Assembly: GCA_963575745.1 (NCBI GenBank)
Contig: CAUYUJ010003614.1
Location: 226,501 to 290,500 of the forward strand
Length of the DNA: 64,000 bases
From: Prorocentrum cordatum
Taxonomy: Eukaryota > Sar > Dinophyceae > Prorocentrales > Prorocentraceae
Direction of reading: 5' to 3'
This document shows, in pieces, positions 5,364-41,925 of the stretch. The position numbers and the translations under genes were made by a program. The first letter of the stretch is position 1. Every line of letters starts with the position of its first letter. Under the pieces are notes generated by a model that saw nothing but the letters and a program-made list of their open reading frames with translations, did not search any database and was not told the DNA's origin.

Positions 5364-5482
5364 AGTCTTAGCCGTAGACGGCCCTGAATAGCTCTGTAGG
5401 CACTGCTTCCAAGATCCTGATAGGTGTCTTAGCCGTGGACGGCCCTGAATAGACCTGTAGGCGCTACTTCCAGGATCCTGAT
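5364..5482. repeat. Two-copy tandem repeat, about 60 bp
   Basis: Two adjacent units, each with CTTAGCCGT, ACGGCCCTGAATAG and GATCCTGAT. They abut the left end of the composite cluster that starts at about 5479. Confidence 0.8.
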
Positions 5483-5503
5483 CAAAGTGAGGGGGCCGAA
5501 CGG
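5479..5503 (-). repeat. Terminal motif T1
   Basis: On the minus strand it reads GGCCCCCTCACTTTGATC. This is the left boundary of the composite cluster and the inverse of the motif at 10866-10899. Confidence 0.6.
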
Positions 5504-5596
5504 TCATCCATTGTCCTTGGGTGCGTGGCTGAAGTGTCGACCCGTGGTGAAGATTCTGCCTGTTGCGTTATTGTTGTTGTTGTTGTTGTTGTTGGC
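5504..5596 (-). repeat. Module E and adjoining (TTG)n
   Basis: On the minus strand it matches 41836-41888 (shared GCAGAATC, CACCACGG and GGACAATG-ATGACCG) and, less fully, 21060-21118. A (TTG)n tract ends it at 5567-5596. Confidence 0.8.
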
Positions 5597-6027
5597 CCCC
5601 GCTTCCGCCTGAGATTTCCTCACAATGTACTCAGGACTGCGCTCTCGCGTGCGACGTCCTCACAAATTATTCTGGAATTGCGTTTCGGCGCTCAGGAACC
5701 ACGCGCGCGCCAAGGACGCCTTCACAACGTGGTATCTTCCCTCTTCCTTCGTCCTTCCCCCTCCCCTTCCTCCCACTCTCCCTCGTTCTTCCCCTCCTCC
5801 TCTTGCAGGGCCCGCGCCAATTCCAATGGCGGGCAGAGAGATGTACGCCCCCGAAGGATTGTCCGCCCGTTCCGGTTTGCCCGTACGTCTAAGCCCGCCG
5901 GCCCCAGCAAAGAGAAATAATCCCCCCGAAAGGGGTGTGATCGAAGACGAAGAGGGCGGGTATCGAGGGTGTCGGGTATACGTGTTGAATGACTCGCGGG
6001 CAAGTAAGAGCGTACAGCCTTAAAATG
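5597..6027 (-). repeat. Modules C (partial) and B, reverse orientation
   Basis: 5597-5735 holds a few diverged units of the 37-nt C minisatellite. 5736-6027 is module B, nearly identical in reverse to 38505-38815. Its reading frames of about 130 codons are shared with the other B copy but match no known protein. Confidence 0.8.
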
Positions 6028-6046
6028 GTTGTTGTTGTTGTTGTTG

Positions 6047-6777
6047 AACATTATTACTTCTAAAGAATAATTATTGTTGGGGCCCCTGGTGCACGACCCC
6101 CCCGCCGCGCCTAGGCCGCAGCCTCATTTTCATCATTTTCGTGAGGAAGTCTCAGGCAAAACGGGTTCCGGTTCCCCTTGCAAAAAATAAGCTAAAGTGG
6201 ACATTTCTTGTTCTAACATAACCAAACTTCAAGAATCCCTTGCAAAAAATAAGGTAAAGTGGACATTCGCGCGCGCAAGACGAAATCCTTCCAAAACCTT
6301 AGTTTTCGTAGCGATTTTAACATAAAAACATCAAAAAACCAATGGTTTTTCAAAAAAAAATGTCAAAATTTCATCCCGCGCGCTCTTGCGGATTCGTAGG
6401 AAACCCAACACTTTTTAAACATTTCTGTCAAACGGGCTTTTGCGAGCAACTTTTTCGAACTTCTGCAACAACGGTTGCGCACCTGCCAGGGCCATCATCC
6501 CTGTCAAATAATACCATGCGGGACACATTCGTTTTTTCTTCGCGCGCGCACGCCGTCGTCGTCGGCCGCGGGGCCCTGAATAGTAGCCACGGTCGTCCGC
6601 ATGCCACGAAGTGAAGTGTCCGAACGTCATAGGGCGGGAAGCTGGGTGTGGGTGGTGGCGAAGAGTCGTTTGGAAATTTGGTAGAGCTTGAACCGGCCCC
6701 CCCACAAAGTGGGGGTATTGCCCGCCTCCTATGAAAACCCTGGCACTGGTGAGAACGGAGTGTCCCCACGTGTTAGT
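6047..6777 (-). repeat. Module A, copy L1
   Basis: Reverse-oriented unit of about 730 bp between (TTG)n tracts at 6028-6046 and 6778-6797. It contains the conserved stem-loop CCCCCAC-TTT-GTGGGGG and an open frame of 96 codons, the same in all the good copies. The A/T-rich second half ends in an imperfect hairpin just before the CAA/TTG tract. Confidence 0.85.
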
Positions 6778-6797
6778 AATTGTTGTTGTTGTTGTTG

Positions 6798-7128
6798 AAT
6801 ATTATTACTCCTAAAGAATAATTATTGTTGGGCCCCCTGGTGCACGCCCCCCTCGCCGCGCCTAGGCCGCAGCCACGTTTTCATCATTTTCGTGAGGAAG
6901 TCTCAGGTGAAACGATGTCATCCAGATCCGGTTGTTTTGTTGACGCCCGCTTTCCTTGTCAAAAAACACTATAAAATGAAATTTCTTGTTCTAACATATC
7001 CAAACTTCAAGAATCCCTTGCAAAAAATAATGTAAAGTGGACATTCGCGCGCGCAAGACGAAATCCTTCCAAAACCTTAGTTTCGTAGCGATTTTAACAT
7101 AAAACCATCAAAAAGCCAATGGTTTTTC

Positions 7129-7159
<31 letters not shown>

Positions 7160-7573
7160 TCAAAATTTCATCCCGCGCGCTCTTGCGGATTCGTAGGAAA
7201 CCCAACACTTTTTAAACATTTCTGTCAAACGGGCTTTTGCGAGCAACTTTTTCGAACTTCTGCAACAACGGTTGCGCACCTGCCAGGGCCATCATCCCTG
7301 TCAAATAATACCATGCGGGACACATTCGTTTTTTCTTCGCGCGCGCACGCCGTCGTCGTCGGCCGCGGGGCCCTGAATAGTAGCCACGGTCGTCCGCATG
7401 CCACGAAGTGAAGTGTCCGAACGTCATAGGGCGGGAAGCTGGGTGTGGGTGGTGGCGAAGAGTCGTTTGGAAATTTGGTAGAGCTTGAACCGGCCCCCCC
7501 ACAAAGTGGGGGTATTGCCCGCCTCCTATGAAAACCCTGGCACTGGTGAGAACGGAGTGTCCCCAGTCTTAAA
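6798..7573 (-). repeat. Module A, copy L2 with a B-type head
   Basis: Nearly identical to the other A units, but the first about 20 nt (element orientation) are those of module B (CAATCATTTAAGACTG) instead of the usual TTACTAGCACGTG. It also has a long A run at 7130-7157. Confidence 0.85.
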
Positions 7574-7575
7574 TG

Positions 7576-7576
<1 letters not shown>

Positions 7577-7611
<35 letters not shown>

Positions 7612-8060
7612 GAACTCTCAGTACAACCAATAAATACGGTTGATCCCCCTCACCAATGCATATTGTTTTTTCTCAATCAAACTGTGCCCCTCGATGCTCG
7701 CACCCTGTTTATTTACAGGGGAAGTCTTGGTGCTCAAGCTGTGCCCGTGGCCCCCAGGTTACAACAACAACGGCTCCCGCCTGGGATTTCCTCGCAATTT
7801 AGCCAGGACCCCCGCTCCCGCCTGAGACTTCCTCGCATTTCAGTCAGGAATTGCGCTCTCGCTTAAGATTTCCTTACAACGTATGCAGGATTTGCTCTTT
7901 TGGCGCTCGGGGGTCACGCTCTGGCTGGAGACTTGCGTATAATTTACTCAAGAATAGCGCCCTTGCGTTGGAATCTCTTGCAATTTGCACAAGCGGCGCG
8001 CTCCCGACACTCAGGCACCCAGGAGCGGCGCTCACGCTTAGGACCCCCTCGCATCTCATT
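7577..8060 (-). repeat. (TTG)n, module D and module C
   Basis: TTG tract 7577-7612. Module D 7613-7757 matches 39300-39452 and 41456-41600 in reverse. Units of the 37-nt C minisatellite run to about 8060. Confidence 0.75.
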
Positions 8061-8084
8061 TGAGAATCGGGATATCGCTGTCCT

Positions 8085-8960
8085 TCGTTGCCCCGTTGCA
8101 TCCCTTCGTGGCCCCCTCGCTGCCCCTCGTGGCCCCGTTGCAGCCCTCCGTGGCCCCCTCACTCCTCTCCGTGGCCCCGTTGCAGCCTTCCGTGACCCCC
8201 TCACTGCCCTTCGTGGCCCCGTTGCAGCCCTTCGTGGCCCCCTCGATGCCCTGCGTGGCCCCGTCGCAGCCCTTCGTGGCCCCCTCGCTGCCCTTCGTGG
8301 CCCCGTTGCAGCCCTTCGTGGCCCCCTCGCTGCCCTGCGTGGCCCCGTTGCACCCCTTCGTGGTCCCCTCGCTGCCCTTCGTGGCCCCGTTGCAGCCCTT
8401 CGGGGCTCCGTTGCAGTCCCTCGTGGCCCCCTCGTTGCCCTTCGTGGCCCCGTTGCAGCTCATCGTGGCCCTCTGCCCTTCGTGGCCCCGTCGCAGCTCT
8501 GTGGCCCCCTCGCTGCCCACCGTGGCCCCATATATGTATGCCCGTTGTGCCCCCCGCTCGTTGGCACCCGTCGTGGCCCCACATGCATGCACTTTGTGGC
8601 CCCGCTGTCGCCCTTCGTGGCCCCCTCGCTGCCTTCGTGGCCCCGTTGCTGCCCTCAGTGGCCCCGTCCTTGCCCTCCGCGGCCCAATATACGTATGCCC
8701 TTCGTGGCCCCCGCTCGGTCGCGCCCGTCGTGGCCCCATGTGCATGCCCTTCGTGGACCTGCTGTCGCCCTTTGTGGCCCCCGTCTTGTCCTACGCGGCC
8801 CGGTTGCTACACTCAGTGGCCCCGTCGTTGCCTTCTGCGGCCCCGCATTATCTGCCCTTCGTGGCCCCCGCTCGTTCGCGCTCTTCGTGGCCCCATACGC
8901 ACTCCCTTCGTGCCCCCGCTGTCGCCCTTCGTGGCCTACTTCGTGCCCTTCGTGGCCCCG
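8085..8960. repeat. 21/42-bp minisatellite (CCTTCGTGGCCCC)
   Basis: Tandem 21-mers alternate between a CCGTTGCA-type and a CCCTCGCT-type, giving a 42-bp higher-order unit. Because 21 is divisible by three, frames on both strands stay open for hundreds of codons (a 470-codon frame covers 7900-9312). They encode only heptad copies such as ALRGPVA and are not taken as a gene. Confidence 0.9.
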
Positions 8961-8989
8961 CTGTCGTTCTCTCTCTCGCTCCTCTCGCT

Positions 8990-9028
8990 TTCGCTCGTCG
9001 TCGTCGTCGTCGCCATCGTCGTCGTCCA

Positions 9029-9087
<59 letters not shown>
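8990..9087. repeat. (TCG)n microsatellite
   Basis: Nearly pure TCG/CGT trinucleotides inside the composite cluster, directly after the 42-bp minisatellite. Confidence 0.95.
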
Positions 9088-9088
<1 letters not shown>

Positions 9089-9342
9089 GGTCGGTGTCCT
9101 GTCCGTTCCTCTTGGGGTCGGGCTGCCGCCGATCAGCGCTGCCGCTGGCCAGGACGGTCCGCGGCCGCTCCGCCGCTTGCCGGGGCTGGCCTGCAGGGAA
9201 GAAAGGTATACCCTCAAAAACGGGTACGATCGAAGACGAAGAGGGTGGGTATCGAGGGTTTGGGAAATACGCGTTAACGGAAACTCGAGCAGATAAGAGC
9301 GAACAGTCTTAAAATGATTGGTGTTGTTGTTAATCATTAAAC
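9088..9342 (-). repeat. Module B-like segment
   Basis: In reverse orientation 9200-9335 follows module B (ACTGTTCGCTCTTA, CCCTCTTCGTC and the A/C-rich head). It is more diverged than the copies at 5736 and 38505. It ends in a short TTG tract. Confidence 0.65.
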
Positions 9343-10400
9343 AGTTATTACTGTTGGGCCCCCCAGGCGCCCTGGCGCTCTCGCCTCGGTGCCAACTACA
9401 TTTTCATTGAAAATGAGGCTCACGCTCGAGCGGTTTGGGGGGGCGCCCAAACCGGCCACCAAACAACAACAACGCTCCCGCTCGAGACTTCCTCCTTTTT
9501 TACTCAGAGCCTGTGCTCTTGCTCGCCGTCGGCCGCCCCAACAAAACCAACGTTCCCGCTCGAGACTTCTTCCCGTTTTACCCTGGACTGGCGCGCTGCT
9601 CTTTCTCTCATCGGCGCCGCCCCCAGCAAGAACAACGCTCCCGCTCGAGATTTCCACCTTTTTTAATCAGAGCTGGTTCTCTTGCTCGCCGCCGAAAACC
9701 GCCGCTCCAACAAAACCAGCGCTCCCGCTCGAGATTTCCTCCCGTTTTACGCTGGACTGGCGCCCAACTCTCTTTCGAATTGGCGCCGCCCCCAGCAAGA
9801 ACAACGCTCCCGCTCGAGGCTTCCTCCCTTTTTCCGGAGAACGGTGCTGTTCCTCGCCGCCGACAGCCCCCGTCCCGACAAAACTGCGGCTCCCCCCGCT
9901 CGAGACTTCTTCCCTTCTTACTCAAGGCAGTGTTCCTCCTCGCCGCTGGCAACCGCCGTCCCAACAGAACCAGCGCTCCCGCTCGAGACTTCGTTTTGTT
10001 TTACGTTGAACTAGCGCCCAATTCTCTTCTGCACTGGCGCCGCTCCCAGCAACAGCAGCACCCCTGCTCGAGACTTCTTCAGTTTCTATTCAGGGCCAGG
10101 TCCTTGCCTCTCCGCCGACAGCCCCCATCCCCACCAAGCCAATCCAGTCGCTCGATACTTCCTTGTGCTTTACCCTTGGCTGGGGCTCAACTGGCGGTCT
10201 CGCATCGGCGCAGCAGGGCGCGGGCATGTTTCGAGGCGGGATATGTTGAAATTCCTCGGGGGAGGTGTTTGCAAGACTTCATTGGGCGGGAGATCCGGGA
10301 ATGGGAATAACGGACCCCCACGATAGAACAATACTCCCCCATGAAGGGGATGATTCTCATGATGGTCGCATGCTGCGTGTGGAAGCATCGCGCATGAGGG
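9343..10400 (-). repeat. C-related minisatellite unit between TTG tracts
   Basis: About 15 units of roughly 55-60 bp, each with CGCTCCCGCTCGAGACTTC, run from 9465 to 10170. On the minus strand the tail (9343-9365) resembles the tail of module A and the head (10380-10408) the CAACAATCAT head. It therefore obeys the same unit rule with a different body. Confidence 0.7.
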
Positions 10401-10404
10401 TAAC

Positions 10405-10865
10405 ATGATTGTTGTTGTCGTCGTCCCACCCGCGACCCACCCGCGACCCACCCCGTGACCCGTCCCGCGACCCACCCGCGACCCACCCCGCGACCCACCC
10501 CGCGACCCACTCGCGAACCACTCGCGACCCACCCGCGACCCACCACGTGACCCACCCGCGACCCACCCGCGACCCACCCCGCGACCCACCCGCGACCCAC
10601 CCACGACCCACCTGCGACCCACTTGCGACCCATCTCGCGACCCACCTCGCGACCCCCCGGCGACCCCCCCGCGACCCACAGGCGACCCAACAACGACCCA
10701 CCCGCGACCCACCCGCGACCCATTTGCGACCCACCAGCGACGCACCCGCGACCTAACCACATTGGCTCAGCGAAAAAATCGGCGCCTGCGGCGGGCTCGT
10801 TGTATAATGTGTGAAGCGTTGGCGCCTGCGGCGGGCTTCCCCAGTCTCGCAAACTGCCGACGTCC
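10405..10865 (+). repeat. Module F: TTG, TCGTCGTCCC and CGCGACCCACC minisatellite
   Basis: TTGTTGTTG is followed by TCGTCGTCCC, then about 30 units of 11 bp (CGCGACCCACC, to about 10755), then GGCGCCTGCGGCGGGC. The same order is found at 21120-21620 and, reversed, at 35560-35990. Confidence 0.85.
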
Positions 10866-10899
10866 CCACCGCCCCCTCACTCTTATCCGCATCTGCAGT
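10866..10899 (+). repeat. Terminal motif T2
   Basis: CGCCCCCTCACTCTTATCCG followed by CATCTGCAG. It is the right boundary of the left composite cluster and inverted relative to T1. Confidence 0.65.
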
Positions 10900-11144
10900 G
10901 TGCTACGGTAGACTGCAGGCACTAGTGGCCAGACCTGGGGGAACCAGTCCACCATCCTTCGCATGATCCTGTCCAAGCTGTGGGCGCGATTTGAGCTGAG
11001 AACGGGCGAGCAGCGAAGAGCGAGCAGTCGTAGACTGAGTGCCGTTGGTGTCGTTGCTGTTTCCAGGCGGAGCCGGGTGAAATTCAGTGCCCGCCGGTGA
11101 CTGACTGACTGACTGATTGACTGACTGAACGTCAGGAGGGCGCC
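10900..11144. other. Spacer with (GACT)n
   Basis: Complex sequence ending in GACT tetranucleotide repeats at 11098-11128. No gene seen. Confidence 0.5.
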
Positions 11145-12716
11145 TTGAACAACACATTTCAAACCGCCCGCGGGCGCGCAACCGCAACTGGGCGACACAT
11201 TTCGCACCGTCCGCGGGCGCGCAACAGCAACCGCAACAAGGCGACACACATCAACCCGCCCGCGGGCGCGCAACCGCAACCGCCCCTGGGCGACACATTT
11301 CAACCCACCCGCGGGCGCGCAACCGCAACTGGGCGACAACACAATTCAACCCGCCCGCGGGCGCGCAAGCGCAACCGCAACTGGGCGACACATTTCAACC
11401 CGCCCGCGGGCACGCAACCGCAATCGCACCTGAACGACACATTTCATCCCGCCCGCGGGCGCGCAACCGCAACTGGGCGACATATTTCAACCCGCCCGCG
11501 GGCGCGCAACCGCAACCGCAACTACGCGACACATTTCAACCCGCCCACGGGCGCGCAACCGCAACCGCAACTGGGCGACACATTTCAACACGCCCGCGGG
11601 CGCGCAACCGCAACCGCACCTGGGCGACACATTTCAAACCGCCCGCGGGCGCGCAAGCGCAACCGCAACTGGGCGACACATTTCAACCCGCCCGCGGGCG
11701 CGCAACCGCAACCGAAACTACGCGACACAATTCGACCCGTCCGCGGGCGCGCAAACGCAACCGCAACTGGGCGACACATTTTAACCCGCCCGCGGGCGCG
11801 CGAGCGCAACCACACCTGGGCGACACATTTCAACACGCCCGCGGGCGCGCAACCGCAACTGGGCGACACATTTCAAGCCGTCCGCGACGCGTAACCGCAA
11901 CAACAACTACGCGACACATTTCGACCCGCCCGCGGGCGCGCAACCGCAACCGCAACTGGGCGACACATTTCAACCCACCCGAGGGCGCGCAACCGCAACA
12001 GCAACTACGCGACACACTTCGACCCGCCCGCGGGCGCGCAAGCGCAACCGCAACTGGGCGACACATTTCAACCCGCCCGCGGGCGCGCAACCGCAACCGC
12101 AACTACGCGACACAATTCGACCCGTCCGCGGGCGCGCAAACGCAACCGCAACTGGGCGACACATTTTAACCCGCCCGCGGGCGCGCGAGCGCAACCACAC
12201 CTGGGCAACACATTTCAACACGCCCGCGGGCGCGCAACCGCAACTGGGCGACACATGTCAAGCCGCCCGCGACGCGTAACCGCAACAGCAACTACGCGAC
12301 ACATTTCGACCCGCCCGCGGGCGCGCAACCGCAACCGCAACTGGGCGACACATTCCAACCCACCCGAGGGCGCGCAACCGCAACAACAACTACGCGACAC
12401 ACTTCGACCCGCCCGCGGGCGCGCAACCGCAACCGCAACTGGGCGACACATTTCAACCCACTCGAGGGCGCGCAACCGCAACAGCAACTACGCGACACAC
12501 TTCGACCCGCCCGCGGGCGCGCAACCGCAACCGCAACTGGGCGACACATTTCAACCCGCCCGCGGGCGCACAACCGCAACCGCACCTGGGCGACACATTT
12601 CGACCCGCCCGCGGGCGCGCAACCGCAACCGCTACTGGGCGACACATGTCAACCCGCCCGCGGGCGCGCAACCGCAACCGCACCTGGGCGACACATTTCA
12701 ACCCGCCCGCGGGCAG
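11145..12716. repeat. Minisatellite with CCGCCCGCGGGCGCGCAA core
   Basis: About 30 units of roughly 45-55 bp: CCCGCCCGCGGGCGCGCAAC, then one or two CCGCAA, then CTGGGCGACACATTTCAA. A higher-order period is visible, since the block around 11800-11920 recurs nearly unchanged 385 bp later at 12186-12311. The self-complementary CCGCGGG core recurs in each unit. Frames here encode TRPRARNRNRNWATHF-type repeats only. Confidence 0.92.
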
Positions 12717-12965
12717 GAGGAAGACGAAGAGGACAGGGAGCAGGCGAAGGAAAAGGATGATCTGGTGCAGGAGCAGGTGGAGGAGGAGAGGGAGGAGGAC
12801 GAGGAGGAGGTAAAGGAGGAGGTAAGGGAGGAGGAGGAGGAGGAGGAGGAGGAGGAGGAGGAGCAGCAGCAGCAGGAGGAGCAGCAGGACGAGGAGGAGG
12901 AGGACGAACAGGAGGAGGAGGACCAGGACGGCCAGGAGGAGGAGGAGGAGGAGGAGGAGGAGGAC
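12717..12965 (+). repeat. (AGG)n-rich tract
   Basis: GAGGAGGAC/GAG repeats. The Glu-rich and Leu-rich frames are repeat translations. Confidence 0.9.
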
Positions 12966-13300: not shown

Positions 13301-13310
13301 GACCCATCCG

Positions 13311-13340
13311 CGCCCCCTCACTCCTATCCGCAACTGCGGG
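13311..13340 (+). repeat. Terminal motif T3
   Basis: CGCCCCCTCACTCCTATCCG followed by CAACTGCGGG, in the same orientation as T2. Confidence 0.6.
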
Positions 13341-13925: not shown

Positions 13926-13959
13926 TCTCGAGGCTCGAGTGGCGCTTTCCTGGCAAGAC

Positions 13960-21059: not shown

Positions 21060-21179
21060 TGACGGTCATTCACTGTCCCTGGGTGCGTGGCTGAAGTGGG
21101 ATTTCGCGGTGCGGATTTTCGTTGTTGTTGTTTGTTGTTGTTTGTTGTTTGTTGTTGTTTATTGTTGTTTGTTGTCGTC
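21060..21179 (-). repeat. Module E and TTG/TTTG tract, third locus
   Basis: 21060-21118 follows module E in reverse (GGTCATTCACTGTCCCTGGG). The TTGTTGTTTG tract follows to 21175. Confidence 0.75.
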
Positions 21180-21570
21180 GTCCCACCCGCAACCCGCCCC
21201 GCGACCCACCCGCGACACACCCCGCGACCCACCCCGCGACCCGCCCGCGACCCACCCGCGACCCGCCCGCGATCCACCCCGCGACCCACCCCGCGACCCA
21301 CCTCGCGACCCACCCGCGACCCACCCGCGACCCACCCGCGACCCACCCCGCCACCCACCCCACCCACCACCCACCCCGCGACCCACCCCGCGACCCACCC
21401 CGCGACCCACCCCGCGACCGCGCGACCCACCCGCGACCCACCCGCGACCCACCCGCGACCCACCCCGCGACCCACCCCGCGACCCACCCGCGACCCACCC
21501 GCGACCCACCCGCGACCCACCCGCGACCCACCCGCGACCCACCCCGCGACCCACCCGCGACCCACCTTCG
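21180..21570 (+). repeat. Module F minisatellite, third locus
   Basis: TCGTCGTCCC, then about 33 units of CGCGACCCACC with a few deletions. It is the same junction as at 10425 and, reversed, at 35970. Confidence 0.9.
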
Positions 21571-21990
21571 ACCCAAACCACGTTCAGATACAAACCACAA
21601 TTTTCGGCGCCTGCGGCTGGTTTTTTTTGCATCCTTCCAGGTGGAGAGCCCGCGACCCACCCCGCGACCAACTCGCGACCAACCCGCGACCCAAACCACG
21701 TTCAGGGTACAAACCACATTTTTCGGCGCCTGCGGCGGGCATCTTGTGCATTCGCTTCAGGTGGAGAGCCCGCAGCCCACCCGCGACCACGATCAGGGTA
21801 CATACCAAATGTTTCGGCTCCTGCGGCGGGCATCTTTCGCATTCGTCCCCGGTGGAGACCCGCGGCCCACCCGCGACCCATTCCACGTTCAGTGTGCAAA
21901 CGAAATTGTTCGGCGCCTGCGGCGGGCTGCTTTTGCATTCCTTCCAGGTGGAGGTGGAGAGCCCGCGACCCACCCGCGACCCAAACCACG
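21571..21990 (+). repeat. 103-bp tandem repeat, four units
   Basis: Each unit holds CCACGTTCAG, TTCGGCGCCTGCGGCGGGC, CTTCCAGGTGGAGAGCC and CGCGACCCACCCGCGACC. The GGCGCCTGCGG block is the one that ends module F elsewhere. Confidence 0.85.
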
Positions 21991-22189
21991 TTCACTGAAC
22001 AAACCAATGCCGCACAAACGCGGCTGCGGATTTTTGCATGACGTCTGCGCCCGCAACGACCTCTTCGAGCCCCGCGCATCCACACCAGCCCGTCCAGCAA
22101 CTTTGCCCTGGCGAGTTGCCTTGATCAGAGAAGCCGGGGAGCATAATGTGGAAAAAGGGATTGCGTTGCCGTTATCTTGGAAAGGAGGG

Positions 22190-26385: not shown

Positions 26386-26849
26386 GCAGCCTGCCTGCCC
26401 TCTACCAGCCTGTCGTACCTCATCTTGCAGCGCTCGACATTTTTGCTGGCCATCTCCTCAAAATCGCCCCTGCGGAGCACGCGGATGCCACCTCTGAGGA
26501 AAGCCTGCTCTTCGCCGGCCAGGTGGGAGAGAACCGTGGCGTGCGAACTTGTCTTAGCCATGTAAGCCTTCGTTTCCAGCAAGAAAGCCGCCACCTTACT
26601 AAAACCCTGCGGTACCAACCCACACGTGAGTTCCGACTGTGAAGGAGAAGTAGCTCTTTCTGTAGAAATGCACAAACCCCCATGAGGTTTCGCGCCCATC
26701 TGGCCGCAACCTTCGTCGCCTGCGCTTCTCTTCCAAGTCGTACTCTGCGAGCAGGTGACCCCCACTTGACCGACTTGAGCGTAGTGTTTGACATCGCAAG
26801 CTCTTCCCGTGCGAAGTCTCCTGCGAGCGCACGCAATGTCATATCTGTC

Positions 26850-27737: not shown

Positions 27738-27786
27738 GATAGTGCACAAGCTAATGATCACCAGCATCATCCAGGAAGCGGGGGAG

Positions 27787-29650: not shown

Positions 29651-29944
29651 ATCGGGAGGCCCAGATGAATGAAACCTGGAACATCTGGGCTGCCTGCGGA
29701 GTCCACGGGTCCCCCGCGCGCCATGGAAGCGTCAAGGGACGGCCCAAGGTGAAGAACCAGTCCTGGGCAACGCGCGTGGTATGGGGCCCGCTGCCCTCAA
29801 GACCTGGCGATTGTTATTCCCAACCCTCCTTGGTTGGGTATTCGTTTTGAACAGAGCTCTGCGGTCTCCAGTCCGTCTCCTCCTTCTCCTCGTCCTTCTC
29901 CTCCTCCTCCCGCCTCCCGTCTCCCTCTCCTCTTGCTTTGTGCG

Positions 29945-31225: not shown

Positions 31226-31229
31226 CGTT

Positions 31230-31975
31230 AGTAACCACCACGACGCCCTTATATCTTGATCGGGGCCTGCGAGCCTTCCGGTTGCTGCTCGCAAAACCAC
31301 ATGCGTCCATGTTACGTCGTCGCCCCGTTGCAGCAATCCTGATGTACTCATGCCCCGCATTGCGCAAGGGTTGGGTACGTCGCCAGGGTAATTATTCTGG
31401 CGGGTACCGGTCGTTACCAGAGGGGGGGGGCTCTGGGCTCCAAGTAGTGGTCATGCTTGGGCGGGGTGGGGTTCCTCGGGTCGGGGGCGCGCCGCGGTCG
31501 CAGTGGTATGCGCCCGAGCAGCACTCGATGCCTGCGAGCACAACAGTGGCCTGCGATTCGACCTCGCGCGCTTCGCCTGACAGCACCTGCACGGCACACG
31601 CGAGCACAACCAGTGGCTTGCGAGCGGCCGCTGCACGCCTGCGACAACCACACCGCAGCGCGAGCACAATCTGCGTCGGAATTGTCGCCTGCATCAATGT
31701 CATTTTCGTCGCAACCCTCCGAGTCCCGCCTGAAGGTTCCCCTGCCCTGCAAAGTACCCCGCCGGTTCCCCCGCTGTATGTTCGTGCTCCAAGAAAGAGG
31801 CGATAATAAGCCTGAGCAGCGTCGGAAAGCGCGAAGTAACGAGCTCACAAGATAGCTCGCCGCTAGCCCCTCGCCGCCAGCCCAAGCGAAAAGCACACAT
31901 CGGGCGTAATCCCAAAGAAGTTGCCAAGGTCAATCATTCTGGGCTCCGTCAATATCCATGGAGGACGGAACAATC
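31230..31975. other. No gene recognised
   Basis: Complex sequence with short CGAGCACAAC repeats at 31515-31680. No known protein family seen. Confidence 0.4.
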
Positions 31976-32680: not shown

Positions 32681-32734
32681 AAACCACCCTGTGGTGTTGG
32701 CTCCTCGTTTTGAAGACAGCATCCCGCGTCTCCT

Positions 32735-32822
32735 CCTTCCTTCCTCCTCCCTCCCCCTCCTCCCTCCTCCTCCTCCTCCTCCTCCTCCTCCTCCTCCCAC
32801 TCCTCCCCCTCCTTCCTCCTTG
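32735..32822. repeat. (CCT)n microsatellite
   Basis: CCTCCTCCTC tract that stands between foldback family 1 and the 90-bp minisatellite. Confidence 0.9.
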
Positions 32823-32849
32823 CGTCTCACCCACCCAGTACAGCGTCTC

Positions 32850-33640
32850 GTGGCCCCATAGGGAGCTCCACCGAAGGCCCCAATGCCACCGCTCGCATGC
32901 GTCACCCACACCCATTTCGGCACACCCGTCACACGTTTCGCGGCCCCATAGAGAGCTCCACCGAAGGCCCCAATGCCACCGCCCACATGCGTCACCCACA
33001 CCCATTTCGTCACACCCCTCACACGTTTCGTGGCCCCATAGGGGGCTCCACCGAAGGCCCCGGTGCCACCGCCCGCATGCGTCACCAAAGCACATTCTGG
33101 CACACCCCTCACGCGTTTCGTGCCCCCATTGGGAGCTTTACCGAAGGCCACAGTGCCACCGCCTGCATGCGTCACCAACACCCATTACGGCACACCCCTC
33201 ACGCGTTTCGTTGCCCCATGGGAAGCTCCACCGAAGGCGCCAGTGCCACCGCCCGCATGCGTCACCCACACCCATGTCGTCACACCCCTCACACGTTTCG
33301 TGGCCCCATAGCCCATATAGAGCTCCAACGAAGGCCCCGGTGCCACCACCCGCGTGCGTCACACACGCCCATTCGAGAACACCCCTCACGCGTTTCGTGG
33401 CCCAACAGGGAGCTCCACCGAAGGCCCCAGTGCCACCGCCCGCATGCATCACCCACACCCACGTCGTCACAGTGTCACACCCCTCACCCGTTGCGTGGCC
33501 CCATAGGGAGCTCCACCGAAGGCCCCAGTGCCACCGCCTGCATGCGTCACCCACGTACGTTTCGGCACACCCCTCACGCGTTTCGTGGCCCCATAGGGAG
33601 CTCCACCGAAGGCGCCAGTGGCTGCGTTCGCATGCGCCCA
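32850..33640 (+). repeat. 90-bp minisatellite, nine units
   Basis: GAGCTCCACCGAAGGCCCC marks units exactly 90 bp apart, with two steps of 97-98 bp. Unit body: CACCGCCCGCATGCGTCACC, CACACCCATTTCGGCACACC, CCTCACACGTTTCGTGGCCC. The unit length keeps long frames open; no gene is inferred. Confidence 0.93.
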
Positions 33641-34095
33641 CAGCACCCAGTTCGGCACGACCCAAGTGGCTGCTTTCGCATGCGCCCACCGGACAAATTA
33701 TGGCACACACCTCACACGTTTCGTAGCCCCGAATGCGGTGTATACAACGACGGTGCTCACAACTGCATATGGTTGGAGTCCTTCGCCAAGCTAATCTTAT
33801 TCGACCCCCCGCCGGCAGGGCCGGCCGCGCCACTCGCTCCGGGCGACCCGTCCCCCTTGAGCGGCCCCTGCTCCCCCTCCTCCTCCTTCGGCCGCCCTCC
33901 CTGTCCCCTTCCATTTTCCTGCATGGTGGCACAATTCGCTTCAACGGTATCCCCGTGGTCATTGCTCTTCCGCCAGCGCAATTACTCTGCTCGGGCAGCA
34001 CGCCGCGCCCGCAGTGGCCCCCAATTTGAAAAACGACCATCGCGCGGTCGGCGGCGGTCTGAAACAATCAACCTGGCGAAGGGCCCAGCTCAAAA
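33641..34095. other. No gene recognised
   Basis: Complex sequence following the last degenerate 90-bp unit. No supported gene. Confidence 0.4.
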
Positions 34096-34099
34096 CAGC

Positions 34100-34760: not shown

Positions 34761-34764
34761 ATTC

Positions 34765-35490
34765 CGCAACCATGCTCAACCATTGTCTATGATTCTGCAG
34801 CAACGAACCACGGCTGAACATTCTAGAATGTCGAACCTCAGGTTCATATTGATTTGAGGTCCATCCTGTGAAGACCTGCAGGGGCCACTCACCCCAACAA
34901 TTGAACCGTGGTGGGATGCTGCCCTTTTCCAGGGGCAAATTACACGGCCGTTGGCTCGTGAACCCAGCCCTTTGGTGGGGAGGCGCAGAAGGAGCCAAAC
35001 GAGCGCGGGGAGGAGCAGGAGTACAAGCGCAGGGAGCATGAGAAGGAGGAATATTAGGGCGAGGATGGGAGGAGCTGGAGGAGAAGGAAGCATGAGGAGA
35101 ACGTGAATGATGGCAGCGGTGAGGTTTCAGATACCATTTTGCGCATACTGGACAGTTGGCCTTGATTATCATAAACGCTGGTGGGCCCTTTTCTGAGCCA
35201 TGGGGTGGACCATTCACTGGTGCCTATGAAAAGCAAAAGATGCCGACGGCAAAGAGGTGACCCACGCCTCCTCCCATGCTGCAACTCTTCGGATCTAAAC
35301 TCGGAAGGCGATGAACCACATTGAAACGCTTCACGCGTGTACAAACCAACTGACAAATTCGCAACGCTATGCTTCTCGACCGTGCCCCTTGTAAATCGCC
35401 AGCGCGCGTGGATACACTGTGCCGCCACACACTAAACACTATACTTGACCGTAAACGTATGCTGAACACCATGTCCAATAATAACGTGAC
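34765..35490. other. No gene recognised
   Basis: More A/T-balanced complex sequence with an AGGAG-rich piece at 34975-35100. Frames of about 100-200 codons on the minus strand match no family I recognise. Confidence 0.4.
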
Positions 35491-35492
35491 AC

Positions 35493-35523
35493 CCCGCAGG
35501 TGCGGATAAGAGTGAGGCGGCGA
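35493..35523 (-). repeat. Terminal motif T5
   Basis: On the minus strand CGCCTCACTCTTATCCGC, then ACCTGCGGGG. Left boundary of the right cluster, inverted relative to T6. Confidence 0.65.
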
Positions 35524-35559
35524 GGGCGTTGTCAGTCTGCGAGGCTCTGAAGAAGCCCG

Positions 35560-35982
35560 CAACAAGGGCCTAACTTTTCCAACTGTACATAGAGCCCGCC
35601 GCAGGCGCCGAATTTTTCGTTAAAGCAAAATGGGTGGATCGCGGGGTGGGTCGCGGGTGGGTCGCGGGACGGGTCGCGGGTGGGTCGCGGGTGGGTCGCA
35701 GATGGGTCGCGGGAGGGTCGCGGGTGGGTCGCGGGTGGGTCGCGGGTGGGTCCAGGGCTGGGTCGCGGGGTGGGTCGCGGGGAGGAGGGTCGCGGGCGGG
35801 TCGCGGGGTGGGTCGCGGGGTGGGTCGCGGGTAGGTCGCGGGGTGGGTCGCGGGTTGGTCGCGGGAGGGTCGCGGGTGGGTCGCGGGCTGGGTCGCGGGG
35901 TGGGTCGCGGGGTGGGTCTCGGGGTGGGTCGCGGGTGGGTCGCGGGGTGGGTCGGGTCGCAGGGGGGACGACGACAGCAACC

Positions 35983-36021
<39 letters not shown>

Positions 36022-36022
36022 T
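35560..36022 (-). repeat. Module F (reverse) and (CAA)n
   Basis: GCCCGCCGCAGGCGCCGAA, then about 30 units of GGGTCGCGGGT to 35962, then GGGGACGACGACAG and (CAA)n at 35980-36018. It is the exact reverse of the order at 10405-10815. Confidence 0.88.
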
Positions 36023-36946
36023 ACTAGCACATGGGGACACTCCGTTCTCACCAGTGCCAGGGTTTTCATACGACGCCCGCCAATACCCCCACTTTGTGGG
36101 GGGGCCGGTTCAAGCTCTACCACATTTCCAAACGACTCTTCGCCACCACCCACACCCAGCTTCCCGCCCTATGACGTTCGGACACTTCACTTCGTGGCCT
36201 GCGGACGACCGTGGCTACTACACTGGCGCATGGGTACAGTGACTTGTTGTGGTAACATTTTCTGGACGCTAGCTTAGTATACGACTTTTCCCCCTGTTCC
36301 AACAGATGTTTTTCGAGGACCTACGGTGCGATTCGTATGATTTTATGTTGCGCGGTGCTGAAATTCCTAAGAAACCCAATGGTTTTTGAAGATTTCGGCG
36401 TGCGCGCGCGAAGAAAAAACGAATGTGTCCCGCATGGTATTATTTGACAGGGATGATGGCCCTGGCAGGTGCGCAACCGTTGTTGGAGAAGTTCGAAGCA
36501 CGTGAAAAAGTTGCTCGCAAAAGCCCGTTTGACAGAAATGTTTAAAAAGTGTTGGGTTTCCTACAAATCCGCAAAAGCGCGCGGGATGAAATTTTGACAC
36601 TTTTTTTTTTTGTTGAAAAACCATTGGTTTTTTATGTTTGTATGGTAAAATCGCTACGAACAATAAGGTTTTGGAAGGATTTCGTCTTGCGCGCGCGAAT
36701 GTCCACTTTACCTTATTTTCGGCAAGGGATTCTTGAAGTTTGGTTATGTTAGAACAAGAAATGCCATTTTATATTGTTTTTTGCAAGGGAAAGCGGGGGG
36801 GAACAAAACAACCGGATCCGGACCAACCCGTTTTGCCGGAGACTTCCTCACGAAAGTGATGAAAACATGGCTGCGGCCTAGGCGCGGCGAGGGGGCCGTG
36901 CACCAGGGGCCCCAACAATAATTATTCTTTAGAAATAATAATGTTC
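36019..36946 (+). repeat. Module A, copy R1, interrupted
   Basis: Aligns with the other A units except that about 165 bp of unrelated sequence (about 36229-36400) replaces the CGGCCGACGACGACGG segment. Confidence 0.8.
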
Positions 36947-36963
36947 AACAACAACAACAACAA

Positions 36964-37724
36964 TTACTAGCACGTGGGGACACACCGTTCTCACCAGTGC
37001 CAGGGTTTTCATAGGAGGCGGGCAATACCCCCACTTTGTGGGGGGGCCGGTTCAAGCTCTACCAAATTTCCAAACGACTCTTCGCCACCACCCACACCCA
37101 GCTTCCCGCCCTATGACGTTCGGACACTTCACTTCGTGGCATGCGGACGACCGTGGCTACTATTCAGGGCCCCGCGGCCGACGACGACGGCGTGCGCGCG
37201 CGAAGAAAAAACGAATGTGTCCCGCATGGTATTATTTGACAGGGATGATGGCCCTGGCAGGTGCGCAACCGTTGTTGCAGAAGTTCGAAAAAGTTGCTCG
37301 CAAAAGCCCGTTTGACAGAAATGTTTAAAAAGTGTTGGGTTTCCTACGAATCCGCAAGAGCGCGCGGGATGAGATTTTGACAATTTTTTGTTGAAAAACC
37401 ATTGGTTTTTTGATGTTTTTATGTTAAAATCGCTGCGAACACTAAGGTTTTGGAAGGATTTCGTCTTGCGCGCGCGAATGTCCACTTTACCTTATTTTTT
37501 GCAAGGGATTCTTGAAATTTGATTATATTAGAACAAGAAATGTCATTTTCTATTGTTTTTTGCAAGGGAAAGCGGATTACAACAAAACAACCGGATCCTG
37601 TACACACCCTCTTTTCTGAGGCTTCCTCACGAAAATGATGAAAATGTAGCTGCGGCCTAGGCGGCGCAGGGGGGGCGCGCACCAGGGGGCCCAACAATAA
37701 TTATTCTTTAGAATAAATAATGTT
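36964..37724 (+). repeat. Module A, copy R2
   Basis: Intact A unit between CAA tracts. The stem-loop is at 37028-37046 and the conserved 96-codon frame at 37038-37328. Nothing in that frame matches a known domain; it is Arg-rich in the middle and ends in a short hydrophobic piece. Confidence 0.9.
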
Positions 37725-37737
37725 CAACAACAACAAT

Positions 37738-38497
37738 TACTAGCACGTGGGGACACTCCGTTCTCACCAGTGCCAGGGTTTTCATAGGAGGCGGGCAATA
37801 CCCCCACTTTGTGGGGGGGCCGGTTCAAGCTCTACCAAATTTCCAAACGACTCTTCGCCACCACCCACACCCAGCTTCCCGCCCTATGACGTTCGGACAC
37901 TTCACTTCGTGGCATGCGGACGACCGTGGCTACTATTCAGGGCCCCGCGGCCGACGACGACGGCGTGCGCGCGCGAAGAAAAAACGAATGTGTCCCGCAT
38001 GGTATTATTTGACAGGGATGATGGCCCTGGCAGGTGCGCAACCGTTGTTGCAGAAGTTCGAAAAAGTTGCTCGCAAAAGCCCGTTTGACAGAAATGTTTA
38101 AAAAGTGTTGGGTTTCCTACGAATCCGCAAGAGCGCGCGGGATGAAATTTTGACATTTTTTTTTTGAAAAACCATTGGTTTTTTGATGTTTTTATGTTAA
38201 AATCGCTACGAAAACTAAGGTTTTGGAAGGATTTCGTCTTGCGCGCGCGAATGTCCACTTTACCTTATTTTTTGCAAGGGATTCTTGAAGTTTGGTTATG
38301 TTAGAACAAGAAATGTCCACTTTAGCTTATTTTTTGCAAGGGAAAACCGATCGTAACAAAACAACCGGATCCGGACCAACCCGTTTTGCCTGAGACTTCC
38401 TCACGAAAATGATGAAAACGTGGCTGCGGCCTAGGCGCGGCGGGGGGGTCGTGCACCAGGGGCCCCAACAATAATTATTCTTTAGAAGTAATAATGT
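37738..38497 (+). repeat. Module A, copy R3
   Basis: Nearly identical to R2, with the same frames at 37747-38101. It ends in the imperfect hairpin AACAATAATTATTCTTTAG with its inverse, then CAACAAC. Confidence 0.9.
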
Positions 38498-38504
38498 TCA
38501 ACAA

Positions 38505-39452
38505 CCATTTTAAGGCTGTACGCTCTTACTTGCCCGCGAGTCATTCAACACGTATACCCTACACCCTCGATGCCCGCCCTCTTCGTCTTCGATCACACCC
38601 CTTTCGGGGGGATTATTTCTCTTTGCTGGGGCCGGCGGGCTTAGACGTACGGGCAAACCGGAACGGGCGGACAATCCTTCGGGGGCGTACATCTCTCTGC
38701 CCGCCATTGGAATTGGCGCGGGCCCTGCAAGAGGAGGAGGGGAAGAACGAGGGAGAGTGGGAGGAAGGGGAGGGGGAAGGACGAAGGAAGAGGGAATATA
38801 CCACGTTGTGAAGGCGTCCTTGGCGCGCGCGTGGTTCCTGAGCGCCGAAACGCAATTCCAGAATAATTTGTGAGGACGTCGCACGCGAGAGCGCAGTCCT
38901 GAGTACACTGTGAGGAAAACTCGGGCGGAAGCGGGGGCCCTGACTAAGTTGCGAGGAAGTCTCAAGCGGGAGCGCCGTTCCTAAGCAAATTGCACGGAAG
39001 TCTCAGGCGGGAGCGGGGGTCCTCACTAAATTGGGAGGAAGTCTCAGGCGGGAGCGCCGTTCCTGAGCCAATTGCGCGGAAATGTTAAGCAGGAGCGGGG
39101 GAGTAAAATTCGAATAAGTCTCACGCGGGAGCGCCGTTCCCACGTAAATTGTATGGAAGTCTCAGGCGGGAGCGGGGGTCTTGATTACATTGCGAGGAAG
39201 TCTCAAACGGGAGCGCCTTTCCTGAGTAAATTGCGCGGAAGTCTCAGGCGGGAGCGGGGGTCCTGAGTAAAAATCGAGGAAGTCTCAGGCGGGAACCGTT
39301 GTTGTTGTAGCCCGGGGGGCAGGGGCACAGTTTGAGCAGGAAGACTTTCCTTGAGAAAAAACCAGGTGCGAGCCCCGGGGGTGGCACTTCAATCGAAAAA
39401 AAATCAATGCGCACCGGTGGGGGGGGATCAACAATAAATATTCGTCAAGAGA
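38505..39452 (+). repeat. Unit B-C-D, copy 1
   Basis: B 38505-38815 (reverse of 5736-6027); C 38820-39295, units of about 37 nt; D 39300-39452. Its tail resembles that of module A before (CAA)n. Confidence 0.85.
38820..39295 (+). repeat. C minisatellite with strictly alternating units
   Basis: Units share GGAAGTCTCAGGCGGGAGCG and then alternate between a GGGGTCCTGAG type and a CCGTTCCTGAG type through at least nine consecutive units, giving a dimeric repeat of about 75 nt. Confidence 0.9.
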
Positions 39453-39455
39453 GTT

Positions 39456-39456
39456 C

Positions 39457-39498
<42 letters not shown>

Positions 39499-40256
39499 TA
39501 CTAGCACGTGGGGACACTCCGTTCTCACCAGTGCCAGGGTTTTCATAGGAGGCGGGCAATACCCCCACTTTGTGGGGGGGCCGGTTCAAGCTCTACCAAA
39601 TTTCCAAACGACTCTTCGCCACCACCCACACCCAGCTTCCCGCCCTATGACGTTCGGACACTTCACTTCGTGGCATGCGGACGACCGTGGCTACTATTCA
39701 GGGCCCCGCGGCCGACGACGACGGCGTGCGCGCGCGAAGAAAAAACGAATGTGTCCCGCATGGTATTATTTGACAGGGATGATGGCCCTGGCAGGTGCGC
39801 AACCGTTGTTGCAGAAGTTCGAAAAAGTTGCTCGCAAAAGCCCGTTTGACAGAAATGTTTAAAAAGTGTTGGGTTTCCTACGAATCCGCAAGAGCGCGCG
39901 GGATGAAATTTTGACATTAAAAAAAAAACCATTGGCTTTTTGATGTTTTTATGTTAAAATCGTTACGAAAACTAAGGTTTTGGAAGGATTTCGTCTTGCG
40001 CGCGCGAATGTCAACTTTACCTTATTTTTTGCAAGGGATTCTTGAAGTTTGGTTATGTTAGAACAAGAAATGTCCACTTTAGCTTATTTTTTGCAAGGGA
40101 AAGCGGGCCGTAACAAAACAACCGGATCCGGACCAACCCGTTTTGCCTGAGACTTCCTCACGAAAATGATGAAAATGTGGCTGCGGCCTAGGCGCGGCGG
40201 GGGGGCCATGCACCAGGGGCCCCAACAATAATTATTCTTTAGAAGTAATAATGTTC

Positions 40257-40321
<65 letters not shown>
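39456..40321 (+). repeat. Module A, copy R4, with flanking (CAA)n
   Basis: CAA tract 39456-39496, A unit 39497-40254, and a long CAA tract 40256-40321 (about 22 repeats). The conserved 96-codon frame is intact. Confidence 0.9.
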
Positions 40322-40322
<1 letters not shown>

Positions 40323-40657
40323 CACTGGAAGACTGTTCGCTCTTACTTGCCCGTGTGTCATGAAAAACGAATTCCCCACACCCTCGATACCCGCCCTTTT
40401 TGTCTTTGATCACGCCCCCTTTGGGGGGATTCTTTCTCTTTGCGGGGGGCTGCGGGCTTTGACAGGTGGGCAAACCTGAACGGGCGGACAATCATTCGTG
40501 GGCGCACATGTGCCCGCCAGTGGAATTGGTGTGGGCCCTGCAATAAGAGGAGGGAGAGAACGAGGCAGAGTGGGAGGAAGGGAGGAGGAGGGACGAAGGA
40601 AGAGGGAAAACGCCAGGAGAAAAGGAGCGAAGAGGGGGGCAGTTGATTAGAGGCAGG

Positions 40658-40699
<42 letters not shown>

Positions 40700-41600
40700 G
40701 AGCGACAGACAGATAAGAAAGGTAGAGAAACAGAGAGAGAGAGAGAGATGGGAGAGAGAGAGAGAGAGAGCGAGAGAAAGAAATAAAGAGGGAGGAGGCA
40801 GGAGAGGGGAGGGAGAAAGGAGGAGGGAGAGGAGGGAGAGGGGATAGGGCAGAGAGGCGTAAGGATGAGGGAAGAGAGGAGGGAGAGAGAAGGGAGGAGA
40901 GGAGGGAGGAGGGAGGAGGGAGAGGGAGGAGAAGCAGGAAGGTAATAGCGTGAACGTTCGAAGAAGTCCTAGGCGAAAGCGCCGTTCCTGAAGGAAGTCT
41001 CGGGCGGGAACCCACGACGGGCGGGCGATCCTCTGACGGGCGGGTCGGGCGGGTGGGACATTCAAGCAGGATGCCTGAGTATGGCGAGAGCGCGATTCCT
41101 AAGTAAATTGTGACGGCGTCCTTGGCGCAGCGTGTTTCCTGAGCGTCGAAAGCGCGATTTCTGAATACATCGCATGGAAGTCACAAGCGAGAGCTCAAAT
41201 TCTGAATAAAATGTGAAGGGTTCTCTGGCGGGAGCGGAGGTCTTGACTAATTGCGAAGAAGTCTTGATTCACTTGCGAAGAAGTCTCAAGCGGGAGCACG
41301 GTTCCTGAGTAAATCGTGCGGAAGTCTCAGATCGGAGGGGGGTCCTGACTAAATTGCAAGTCACAGGCGGGAGCACCGATCCTGAGTAAATTGTGAAGAA
41401 GTCTCAGGCGGGAGCGGGGGCCCTGAGTAAATTTGGAGGAAGTCTCAAGCGGGAGCTGTTGTTGAGGGATCTGGGGGGCCAGGGGTGCAGTTTGAGCAGC
41501 AAGACTTTCCTTTTCAAAAAACAAGGTGCGAGCGTCGAAGGGCACACTTTGATTGAGAAAAAACCGTATGCACCGGTGAGGGGGGATCAACAATAGTTAT
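40322..41600 (+). repeat. Unit B-C-D, copy 2, with (GA)n insert
   Basis: B 40322-40620 (diverged); GA-rich tract 40650-40940; C units 40960-41455; D 41456-41600. Confidence 0.8.
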
Positions 41601-41659
41601 TCTTCAAAAATGAAAACTTACAACGACAACAGCAACAAAACACCACCACCACCACCGCC

Positions 41660-41690
<31 letters not shown>

Positions 41691-41757
41691 CCAACACCAA
41701 CACCAACAACAACAACAACAACACCAACAACAACAACAGCAACAGCAACAGCAACAG

Positions 41758-41789
<32 letters not shown>

Positions 41790-41835
41790 TCAACAACAAC
41801 AACACCAACAACAACAACAACGCAACAAGCAGAAT
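41601..41835. repeat. (CAA)n/(CAACAC)n tract
   Basis: Long degenerate run of CAA with CAC and CAG variants. Confidence 0.95.
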
Positions 41836-41925
41836 CCTCACCACGGATCCCCACTAGAGCCACATACCCAGGGACAATGAATGACCGTTCGGCCCCCTCA
41901 CTCTGATATCCGCGCCACTGTGCGA
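41836..41925 (+). repeat. Module E and terminal motif T6
   Basis: 41836-41888 matches the reverse of 5504-5556. 41889-41915 reads GGCCCCCTCACTCTGATATC, then CGC, closing the right cluster. Confidence 0.75.

What the first reader, a model, noticed from the sequence alone, without database searches (positions are those of the whole stretch)
5479..41925. Two multi-kilobase composite elements with shared inverted terminal motifs
5479-10899 and 35493-41925 are built from the same modules (A-F) in opposite orientation. Each is bounded by GATAAGAGTGAGG-type motifs facing opposite ways, with a CCGCANNTGCGG-like palindrome at most ends. Copies of the motif also occur at 13311 and 29193. I know of no described element with this plan and no enzyme in it was recognised. 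It could be a large non-autonomous transposon, or a replication- or recombination-driven array.
Basis: partly seen in the sequence, partly recalled or inferred. Interest (0 to 1): 0.88.

Follow-up and report, generated by a model that had tools for sequence, protein, structure and literature searches.

The report
Rolling-circle transposons in a dinoflagellate genome
The two puzzling composite blocks are copies of a very common jumping-DNA family, most likely moved by rolling-circle (Helitron) enzymes, in what looks like the genome of a bloom-forming dinoflagellate; the class is known, this family seems undescribed, and its patchwork interior is unusual.

Summary
The blocks are two full-length copies (5482-10907 +, 35485-41906 -) of one non-autonomous transposon family, best explained as Helitron2-type rolling-circle elements. 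Their ends differ: 5' TCAGAGTGAGG; 3' CCTCACTCTTATC, the hairpin CCGCANNTGCGG, then GGTGCTAYR. The motif is thus an asymmetric inverted repeat, and the palindrome belongs to the 3' end only. In the 4.13-Gb genome 8048 3' ends and 6942 5' ends match at up to 3 mismatches, 0 in backward controls. Listed exact ends pair in order, modally 1.5 kb apart (38 pairs; 0 wrong-order on the same strand; 7 on opposite strands). Twenty empty-site paralogues of two insertions show no target duplication; the preferred site is purine|T. The genome has at least 151 Helitron Rep matches, none linked to these ends, so the autonomous partner is unproven. The orphan motifs are a 3' end without a recognised 5' end (29193) and a decayed 3' end (13311). 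Unusual is the interior: cassettes joined at strand-biased (TTG)n tracts, repeated or differently combined between copies. A new family of a known kind, with that twist.

The parts
5482..10907 (+). Element E1, full length (5426 bp, TC...CTACG); preceding base A at 5481 counted as host
   Evidence: Both ends found; boundaries taken from empty sites of other copies, uncertain by about 1 nt; compared with 11 other copies
35485..41906 (-). Element E2, full length (6422 bp); preceding base A at 41907 counted as host
5482..5492 (+). 5' asymmetric terminal inverted repeat of E1 (TCAAAGTGAGG)
10875..10887 (+). 3' asymmetric inverted repeat of E1 (CCTCACTCTTATC)
10887..10898 (+). 3' hairpin of E1, CCGCATCTGCAG (one stem mismatch)
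41896..41906 (-). 5' inverted repeat of E2 (TCAGAGTGAGG)
35505..35517 (-). 3' inverted repeat of E2 (CCTCACTCTTATC)
35494..35505 (-). 3' hairpin of E2, CCGCACCTGCGG
5571..5594 (+). (TTG)8 joint between the conserved 5' end and cassette M1
5595..6028 (+). Cassette M1 of E1
6029..6046 (+). (TTG)6 joint
6047..6779 (+). Cassette M2, first copy in E1
   Evidence: a 422-bp part (6359-6780) matches 24 candidate regions genome-wide, this window included, 17 of them near full length
6780..6797 (+). (TTG)6 joint
6798..7576 (+). Cassette M2, second tandem copy in E1 (91% to the first)
7577..7612 (+). (TTG)12 joint
7613..10408 (+). Cassette N of E1; between the exact ends at C1:2092681 and C1:2099726 the end of N is followed by the start of N across a degenerate TTG tract
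10409..10417 (+). (TTG)3 joint before the conserved 3' region
10418..10907 (+). 3' region with GGGTCGC-type minisatellite, alike in E1 and E2 (81%) and shared in part by L009, L010, L011, L012, L022
29198..29230 (+). 3' end of a further element (CCTCACTCTTATCCGCAATTGCGGGGTGCTATG); about 100 bp alike to L009, no recognised 5' end upstream
13316..13339 (+). Decayed 3' end (CCTCACTCCTATC + CCGCAACTGCGG; tail not conserved), no recognised 5' end
21062..22030 (+). Eroded copy that has lost both tips: 5' region from GACGGTCATTCACTG on, then the GGGTCGC minisatellite; right border approximate

Best explanation
E1 and E2 are non-autonomous Helitron2-type rolling-circle transposons. A Helitron RepHel protein encoded elsewhere is inferred to nick at the 5' TC end, copy one strand by rolling-circle replication, stop after the 3' hairpin, and join the copy into a purine|T site without a target duplication. 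Shown here: the ends, their pairing, their number, absence of target duplication at two sites, site preference, and many Rep genes in the genome. Inferred: that a RepHel protein moves this family, and the nicking and copying steps. The interiors are mosaics of cassettes delimited by (TTG)n tracts; I infer that template switching or unequal exchange at these tracts duplicates and recombines cassettes.
For: 3' end pattern: 8048 places at up to 3 mismatches, 0 in the backward control. 5' end pattern: 6942, control 0. Pairing, from listed places only (100 3' ends listed; 158 5' ends: 100 listed and 58 of the 100 listed): 38 pairs within 10 kb in the right order, involving 36 of the 100 3' ends; 0 on the same strand in the wrong order; 7 on opposite strands. 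Empty sites: for the C750 and C603 insertions, 10 fetched paralogues each join the flanks with no duplication. Site: the base before TCAG is A in 1433 of 2250 exact ends; of the 817 others the 100 listed are G 95, T 4, C 1. The base after CTACG is T in 2020 of 2457. Geometry: 5' inverted repeat at the 5' tip, 3' inverted repeat 20 bp from the 3' end and directly before the hairpin, as PMC3627910 defines Helitron2. Rep: 150 of 1615 PF14214 candidates were scored and gave 151 matches, best E 6e-56, 0 of 14 control genomes; one Rep-bearing Helitron with different ends is 12.37 kb and 99.7% identical in two copies.
Against: No RepHel gene was tied to these ends. tblastn with five Rep queries found no Rep in the window or in the element loci L001-L028. 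The 4 kb upstream of eight Rep copies lack the 5' end, apart from one 6-mismatch match on the far strand of L035 that I take for chance. A 2-kb sample from inside a 7-kb pair of exact ends holds cassettes and no Rep match. The 3' terminus is CTAYR, not CTRR. A 5' hairpin pairing the inverted repeat with downstream bases is the best fold in 6 of 12 copies, in part in a seventh, and the consensus fold of 15 copies is a different one. In the C750 empty sites the base before the T is C in 7 of 10, not a purine, and those positions vary, so that site alone does not fix the boundary to the base.
Confidence: 0.85

Rival explanations
1. A cut-and-paste DNA transposon (MITE-like) with terminal inverted repeats, moved by a DDE transposase.
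For: Inverted repeats of about 11 bp at both ends; paired ends of variable spacing; very short copies, 134 and 154 bp.
Against: No target duplication at two insertions checked against 20 empty paralogues. The two termini are not equivalent: 20 bp with a hairpin lie outside the repeat at one end only, conserved genome-wide. Pfam scans of 29 ORFs from the window and fetched loci found no transposase; this is a sample, not every ORF.
Confidence: 0.06
2. Not a mobile element: a satellite or segmental-duplication landscape in which the motif is a recombination joint.
For: Tandem copies exist: the L008/L012 array and 3' ends spaced 105 bp on C6778. The C750 locus itself appears a second time on C20155.
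Against: Thousands of dispersed ends, fixed order of listed ends and clean empty sites.
Confidence: 0.03
3. Movement by some other single-strand mechanism (a HUH or tyrosine/serine enzyme outside the Helitron family) that also needs terminal hairpins and makes no target duplication.
For: No enzyme has been linked to these ends; hairpin ends and lack of target duplication are not unique to Helitrons (PMC3627910, passage).
Against: The TC start, purine|T site and asymmetric inverted repeats and the abundance of Helitron Rep genes together point to Helitron2.
Confidence: 0.06

Closest known systems
Helitron2 (Bao and Jurka 2013, PMC3627910; passages read)
   Same: Short asymmetric terminal inverted repeats; 5' repeat at the tip; 3' repeat 20 bp from the end, directly before a hairpin; 5' T; insertion without target duplication as in most non-autonomous Helitron2 of Chlamydomonas; 3' ends outnumber 5' ends (8048 against 6942, though the two patterns differ in stringency).
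   Different: Target purine|T rather than after TTTT as in Chlamydomonas; the 5' hairpin is not firmly shown; no RepHel linked; cassette-like interior.
FoHeli Helitrons of Fusarium oxysporum (PMC5148889; passages read)
   Same: FoHeli1/2 start with TCAG; asymmetric inverted repeats; insertion before a T.
   Different: 3' end ATTTT and site TNAT|T in FoHeli1/2; here CTAYR and purine|T; those elements carry RepHel.
Helentrons and their non-autonomous HINE/DINE-1 elements (PMC4067079; passages read)
   Same: High copy number, no coding capacity, subterminal inverted repeats, 3' palindrome, internal microsatellites or tandem repeats.
   Different: TT target in Helentrons; no endonuclease-bearing partner was looked for here; the microsatellite here joins several cassettes.
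Canonical Helitron1 (features as given in PMC3627910 and PMC4067079, passages)
   Same: 5'-TC, site ending in T with A favoured before the element, no target duplication, 3' hairpin.
   Different: No CTRR end; has asymmetric inverted repeats, which Helitron1 lacks.

Membership tests
Helitron2 | Short (8-15 bp) asymmetric inverted repeats, 5' one 0-2 bp from the end, 3' one about 20-30 bp from the end and just upstream of a hairpin | tested here: met
   TCAGAGTGAGG against CCTCACTCTTATC (10 of 11 bp match, 9 in a row), then hairpin, 20 bp to the end; genome-wide
Helitron2 | 5'-terminal hairpin using part or all of the 5' inverted repeat | tested here: inconclusive
   Best fold in 6 of 12 copies, partly in a seventh; consensus fold of 15 copies differs
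Helitron2 | 3'-terminal hairpin | tested here: met
   CCGCANNTGCGG fixed at the 3' end; stem predicted, at least in part, in 9 of 12 copies, not in E1, L014, L027
Helitron2 | RepHel protein between such ends (autonomous member) | tested here: inconclusive
   Rep genes abound, but none was linked to these ends; only a small part of the Rep loci could be read
Helitron (superfamily) | No target-site duplication | tested here: met
   Two insertions, 10 empty paralogues fetched for each
Helitron (superfamily) | Insertion between A and T (canonical) | tested here: inconclusive
   Before the element A 1433 of 2250, the rest nearly all G in the 100 listed of 817; after it T 2020 of 2457: purine|T rather than strict A|T
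Helitron1 | 5'-TC | tested here: met
   C603 empty sites and the base preferences place TC first
Helitron1 | 3'-CTRR | tested here: not met
   Mostly CTACG, CTATG, CTACA or CTATA
Helentron | TT target (its fused endonuclease domain was not searched for) | tested here: not met
   Target is purine|T, not TT
TIR (DDE) transposons | Target-site duplication of fixed length | tested here: not met
   None at two sites

The most novel reading that the evidence does not exclude
The family is a Helitron2 lineage whose interior is a cassette array: modules bounded by (TTG)n tracts on one strand are duplicated, reordered and swapped between elements because the tracts act as template-switch or exchange joints during rolling-circle copying, giving a transposon that continually reassembles its own cargo.
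Probability: 0.35. Interest if true: 0.65.

Novelty: new member of a known kind. Interest (0 to 1): 0.46.

Why it matters
Thousands of copies of one rolling-circle family, beside at least 151 Helitron Rep matches, would make Helitrons a visible force in a 4-Gb dinoflagellate genome whose paper does not mention them in its main text (0 occurrences of 'helitron' in PMC10666404; supplements not searched; 0 papers of the held library contain both Prorocentrum and Helitron). The defined ends turn an unannotated repeat into a searchable family, with clean empty sites for insertion polymorphism. The (TTG)n-joined cassettes give a concrete case for how Helitrons gain and shuffle cargo, which to my knowledge is an open question.

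Tried and rejected
(1) tRNA and Rfam scans of the window: nothing. (2) Pfam on 9 window ORFs, 10 further window ORFs and 10 ORFs from fetched loci: no transposase; the only Helitron hit was the deliberately fetched Rep gene in L029. (3) The GATAGGAGTGAGGTCGCA class (L019, L020, L028) was dropped: no hairpin follows the motif, and these loci match the 5' part of the Rep-bearing family A at 70%. (4) Partner search: family A termini differ from ours; 4 kb upstream of eight other Rep copies has no convincing 5' end of this family; five Rep queries found nothing in element loci or window; 2 kb from inside a 7-kb pair of exact ends is cassettes, not Rep. (5) Pattern scan of viral contigs: 0, with the tool's caution that records of this genome may be left out. 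(6) The 5' hairpin and its covariation were not convincing. (7) The palindrome as an independent signal: barely above chance in the window. (8) Introners, described for dinoflagellates as specialised intron-making transposable elements (passage in PMC11453091), were set aside without a dedicated test.
Full report
WHAT THE WINDOW IS. The window is C3614:226501-290500 of a genome of 4,128,499,153 bases in 21,875 contigs; window GC is 59.4%. Its contig C1 is 3,562,531 bases long. The Prorocentrum cordatum assembly is described as 4.15 Gbp, 22,724 scaffolds, longest 3.56 Mbp, GC 59.7% (PMC10666404, passages).

THE OBSERVATION. The motif is over-represented in the window (33 against 13 expected), and both blocks are built from the same modules in opposite orientation. 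Oriented alike, the sites of interest fall into two classes. Class 5': R|TCAGAGTGAGGGGGCCGAACGGTCATTCAYTGTCC (5481, 41907). Class 3': CCTCACTCTTATC-CGCANNTGCGG-GGTGCTAYR (10887, 29210, 35505; a decayed copy at 13328). The palindrome belongs to the 3' class only, so each block is one element with two unlike ends.

GENOME-WIDE TEST. The 3' pattern (35 places, 3 mismatches) hits 8048 places and the backward control 0. The 5' pattern hits 6942, control 0. Only the first 100 or so places of a search are listed. Using the 100 listed exact 3' ends and 158 listed exact 5' ends in about the same contig range (100 with A, and 58 of the 100 listed without A), there are 38 pairs within 10 kb on the same strand with the 5' end upstream, 0 with it downstream, and 5 + 2 on opposite strands; 36 of the 100 3' ends are paired (a first count with 89 5' ends gave 17, 0 and 4). 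The modal length is about 1.5 kb. Of the 20 loci fetched (19 of 10 kb, one of 2.2 kb), 3 are not members (L019, L020, L028). Of the 17 others, 13 have a recognisable 5' end upstream of a 3' end, some of them short or eroded, and 4 do not (L013, L015, L016, L017). Twelve elements were compared (E1, E2 and ten from the loci): they run from 134 to 6423 bp in that call's coordinates, share roughly the first 80-120 bp (only 37 bp in L014), most share a 3' region, and the longer ones are mosaics inside.

INSERTION SITE. Joined flanks were searched for two insertions. For C750, 121 matches were returned; 10 junction-spanning paralogues were fetched and aligned. For C603, 40 matches were returned; 10 were fetched and aligned. 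In neither case is host sequence duplicated. C603 reads GGAT-A|TC...CTACG|TATTCGG when filled and GGA(T/C)-(G/A)-T(A/G)TTC in the 10 empty copies. C750 reads GCGAAA-A|TC...CTACG|TATCG when filled; the empty copies mostly read GCGAAA-C-TNTCG (C before the T in 7 of 10), so the base before the T is not conserved there and that site leaves the boundary open by about a base. The reading that the element starts with TC and ends with CTAYR rests on C603 and on the base counts. Genome-wide, A precedes the exact 5' end in 1433 cases and another base in 817, of which the 100 listed are G 95, T 4, C 1. T follows CTACG in 2020 cases and another base in 437. The site is purine|T.

ENZYME. A search with PF14214 (Helitron_like_N) scored 150 of 1615 candidates and gave 151 matches, many in open frames over 1000 aa, and none in 14 control genomes. 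One Rep-bearing family was followed end to end: 12.37 kb, 99.7% identity between two copies, with its own different ends sitting in (TA)n; Pfam confirms its Rep domain. No Rep gene was found in element DNA. The partner is therefore unproven; most Rep loci were never read.

HOW IT PROBABLY WORKS. The plan fits Helitron2: asymmetric inverted repeats with the 3' one just inside a terminal hairpin, a T start, and no target duplication (PMC3627910; PMC5148889). By that model the RepHel protein acts at TC, copies one strand, reads the 3' repeat and hairpin as the stop, and joins the copy to a purine|T site. These steps are inferred. A 5' hairpin using the repeat was the best fold in 6 of 12 copies, in part in a seventh, and was not the consensus fold of 15 copies.

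THE INTERIOR. In element orientation, runs of (TTG)3 or longer number 45 against 7 CAA runs in the 29.3 kb of the twelve elements. Control DNA outside elements has 8 TTG and 5 CAA runs in 126 kb (74.3 kb of flanks from 10 loci plus 52.2 kb of the window). Runs of four or more are 27 against 1 in elements and 0 against 0 in the window outside them. Many runs sit between modules: E1 is 5' end-(TTG)8-M1-(TTG)6-M2-(TTG)6-M2-(TTG)12-N-(TTG)3-3' end. L010 runs from its 5' end straight into M2, there without a perfect (TTG)3 run, and the 134-bp copy L025 is 5' end-(TTG)3-3' end. Between the exact ends at C1:2092681 and C1:2099726 the end of N is followed by the start of N across a degenerate TTG tract. 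A 422-bp part of M2 is found at 24 candidate regions, this window included; 17 are near full length, 16 of them 96-100% identical and one 89%. At two other M2 places the upstream DNA is, in one, a stretch resembling the interior of L010 (L085) and, in the other, unrelated up to the TTG tract (L086); whether those lie inside elements was not tested. A core of about 440 bp of M2 is 97-100% alike between E1 and E2, the rest of the unit nearer 85-90%, and the element ends 81-88%: either the core entered later or it was homogenised. Exchange or template switching at (TTG)n is my reading, not shown.

WHAT IS KNOWN. Helitrons have been noted among repeats of Symbiodinium (PMC9087856, one passage). 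Searches of the held library for Prorocentrum + Helitron (0 papers), dinoflagellate + Helitron + genome (17), dinoflagellate + rolling-circle + transposon (10), Helitron2 + protist (2) and a five-term list (10 of 236 listed) showed no title or abstract start that describes this family; beyond the passages named I read only the listings. Verdict: an ordinary class, a large and apparently undescribed family, and an interior worth a second look.

Noticed in passing
window 525-1601 and 4001-5107, - strand: Two nearby ORFs of 358 and 368 aa, each matching KH_1 RNA-binding domains in three stretches (Pfam, E 3e-32 and 3.5e-32): a pair of KH-domain genes next to E1.
   Followed up: no
window 26193-28916, - strand: 907-aa ORF with a weak, below-cut-off match to Exo_endo_phos (E 0.0022).
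   Followed up: no
window 11146-12727, 29843-31297, 32753-33686: Minisatellite arrays with periods of 49, 101 and 90 bp.
   Followed up: no
G000:C6778:26444-30133: Seven exact 3' ends of this family in a row, three of them spaced 105 bp: a tandem array seeded by element ends, perhaps a nascent satellite.
   Followed up: no
L012/L008 (C17716): Tandem array whose unit is an element plus about 65 bp of flank, so the flank seems to have been duplicated along with the element.
   Followed up: partly
L029-L032 (C4796, C8041): A 12.37-kb Rep-bearing Helitron, 99.7% identical between two copies, inserted in (TA)n, with a hairpin-like 5' start: a recently active autonomous candidate of another family.
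   Followed up: partly
empty sites L071-L080: The target of the C603 insertion is itself a dispersed repeat that looks like an inverted repeat (GGTGGATATGGAT...ATCCATATCCACC).
   Followed up: no
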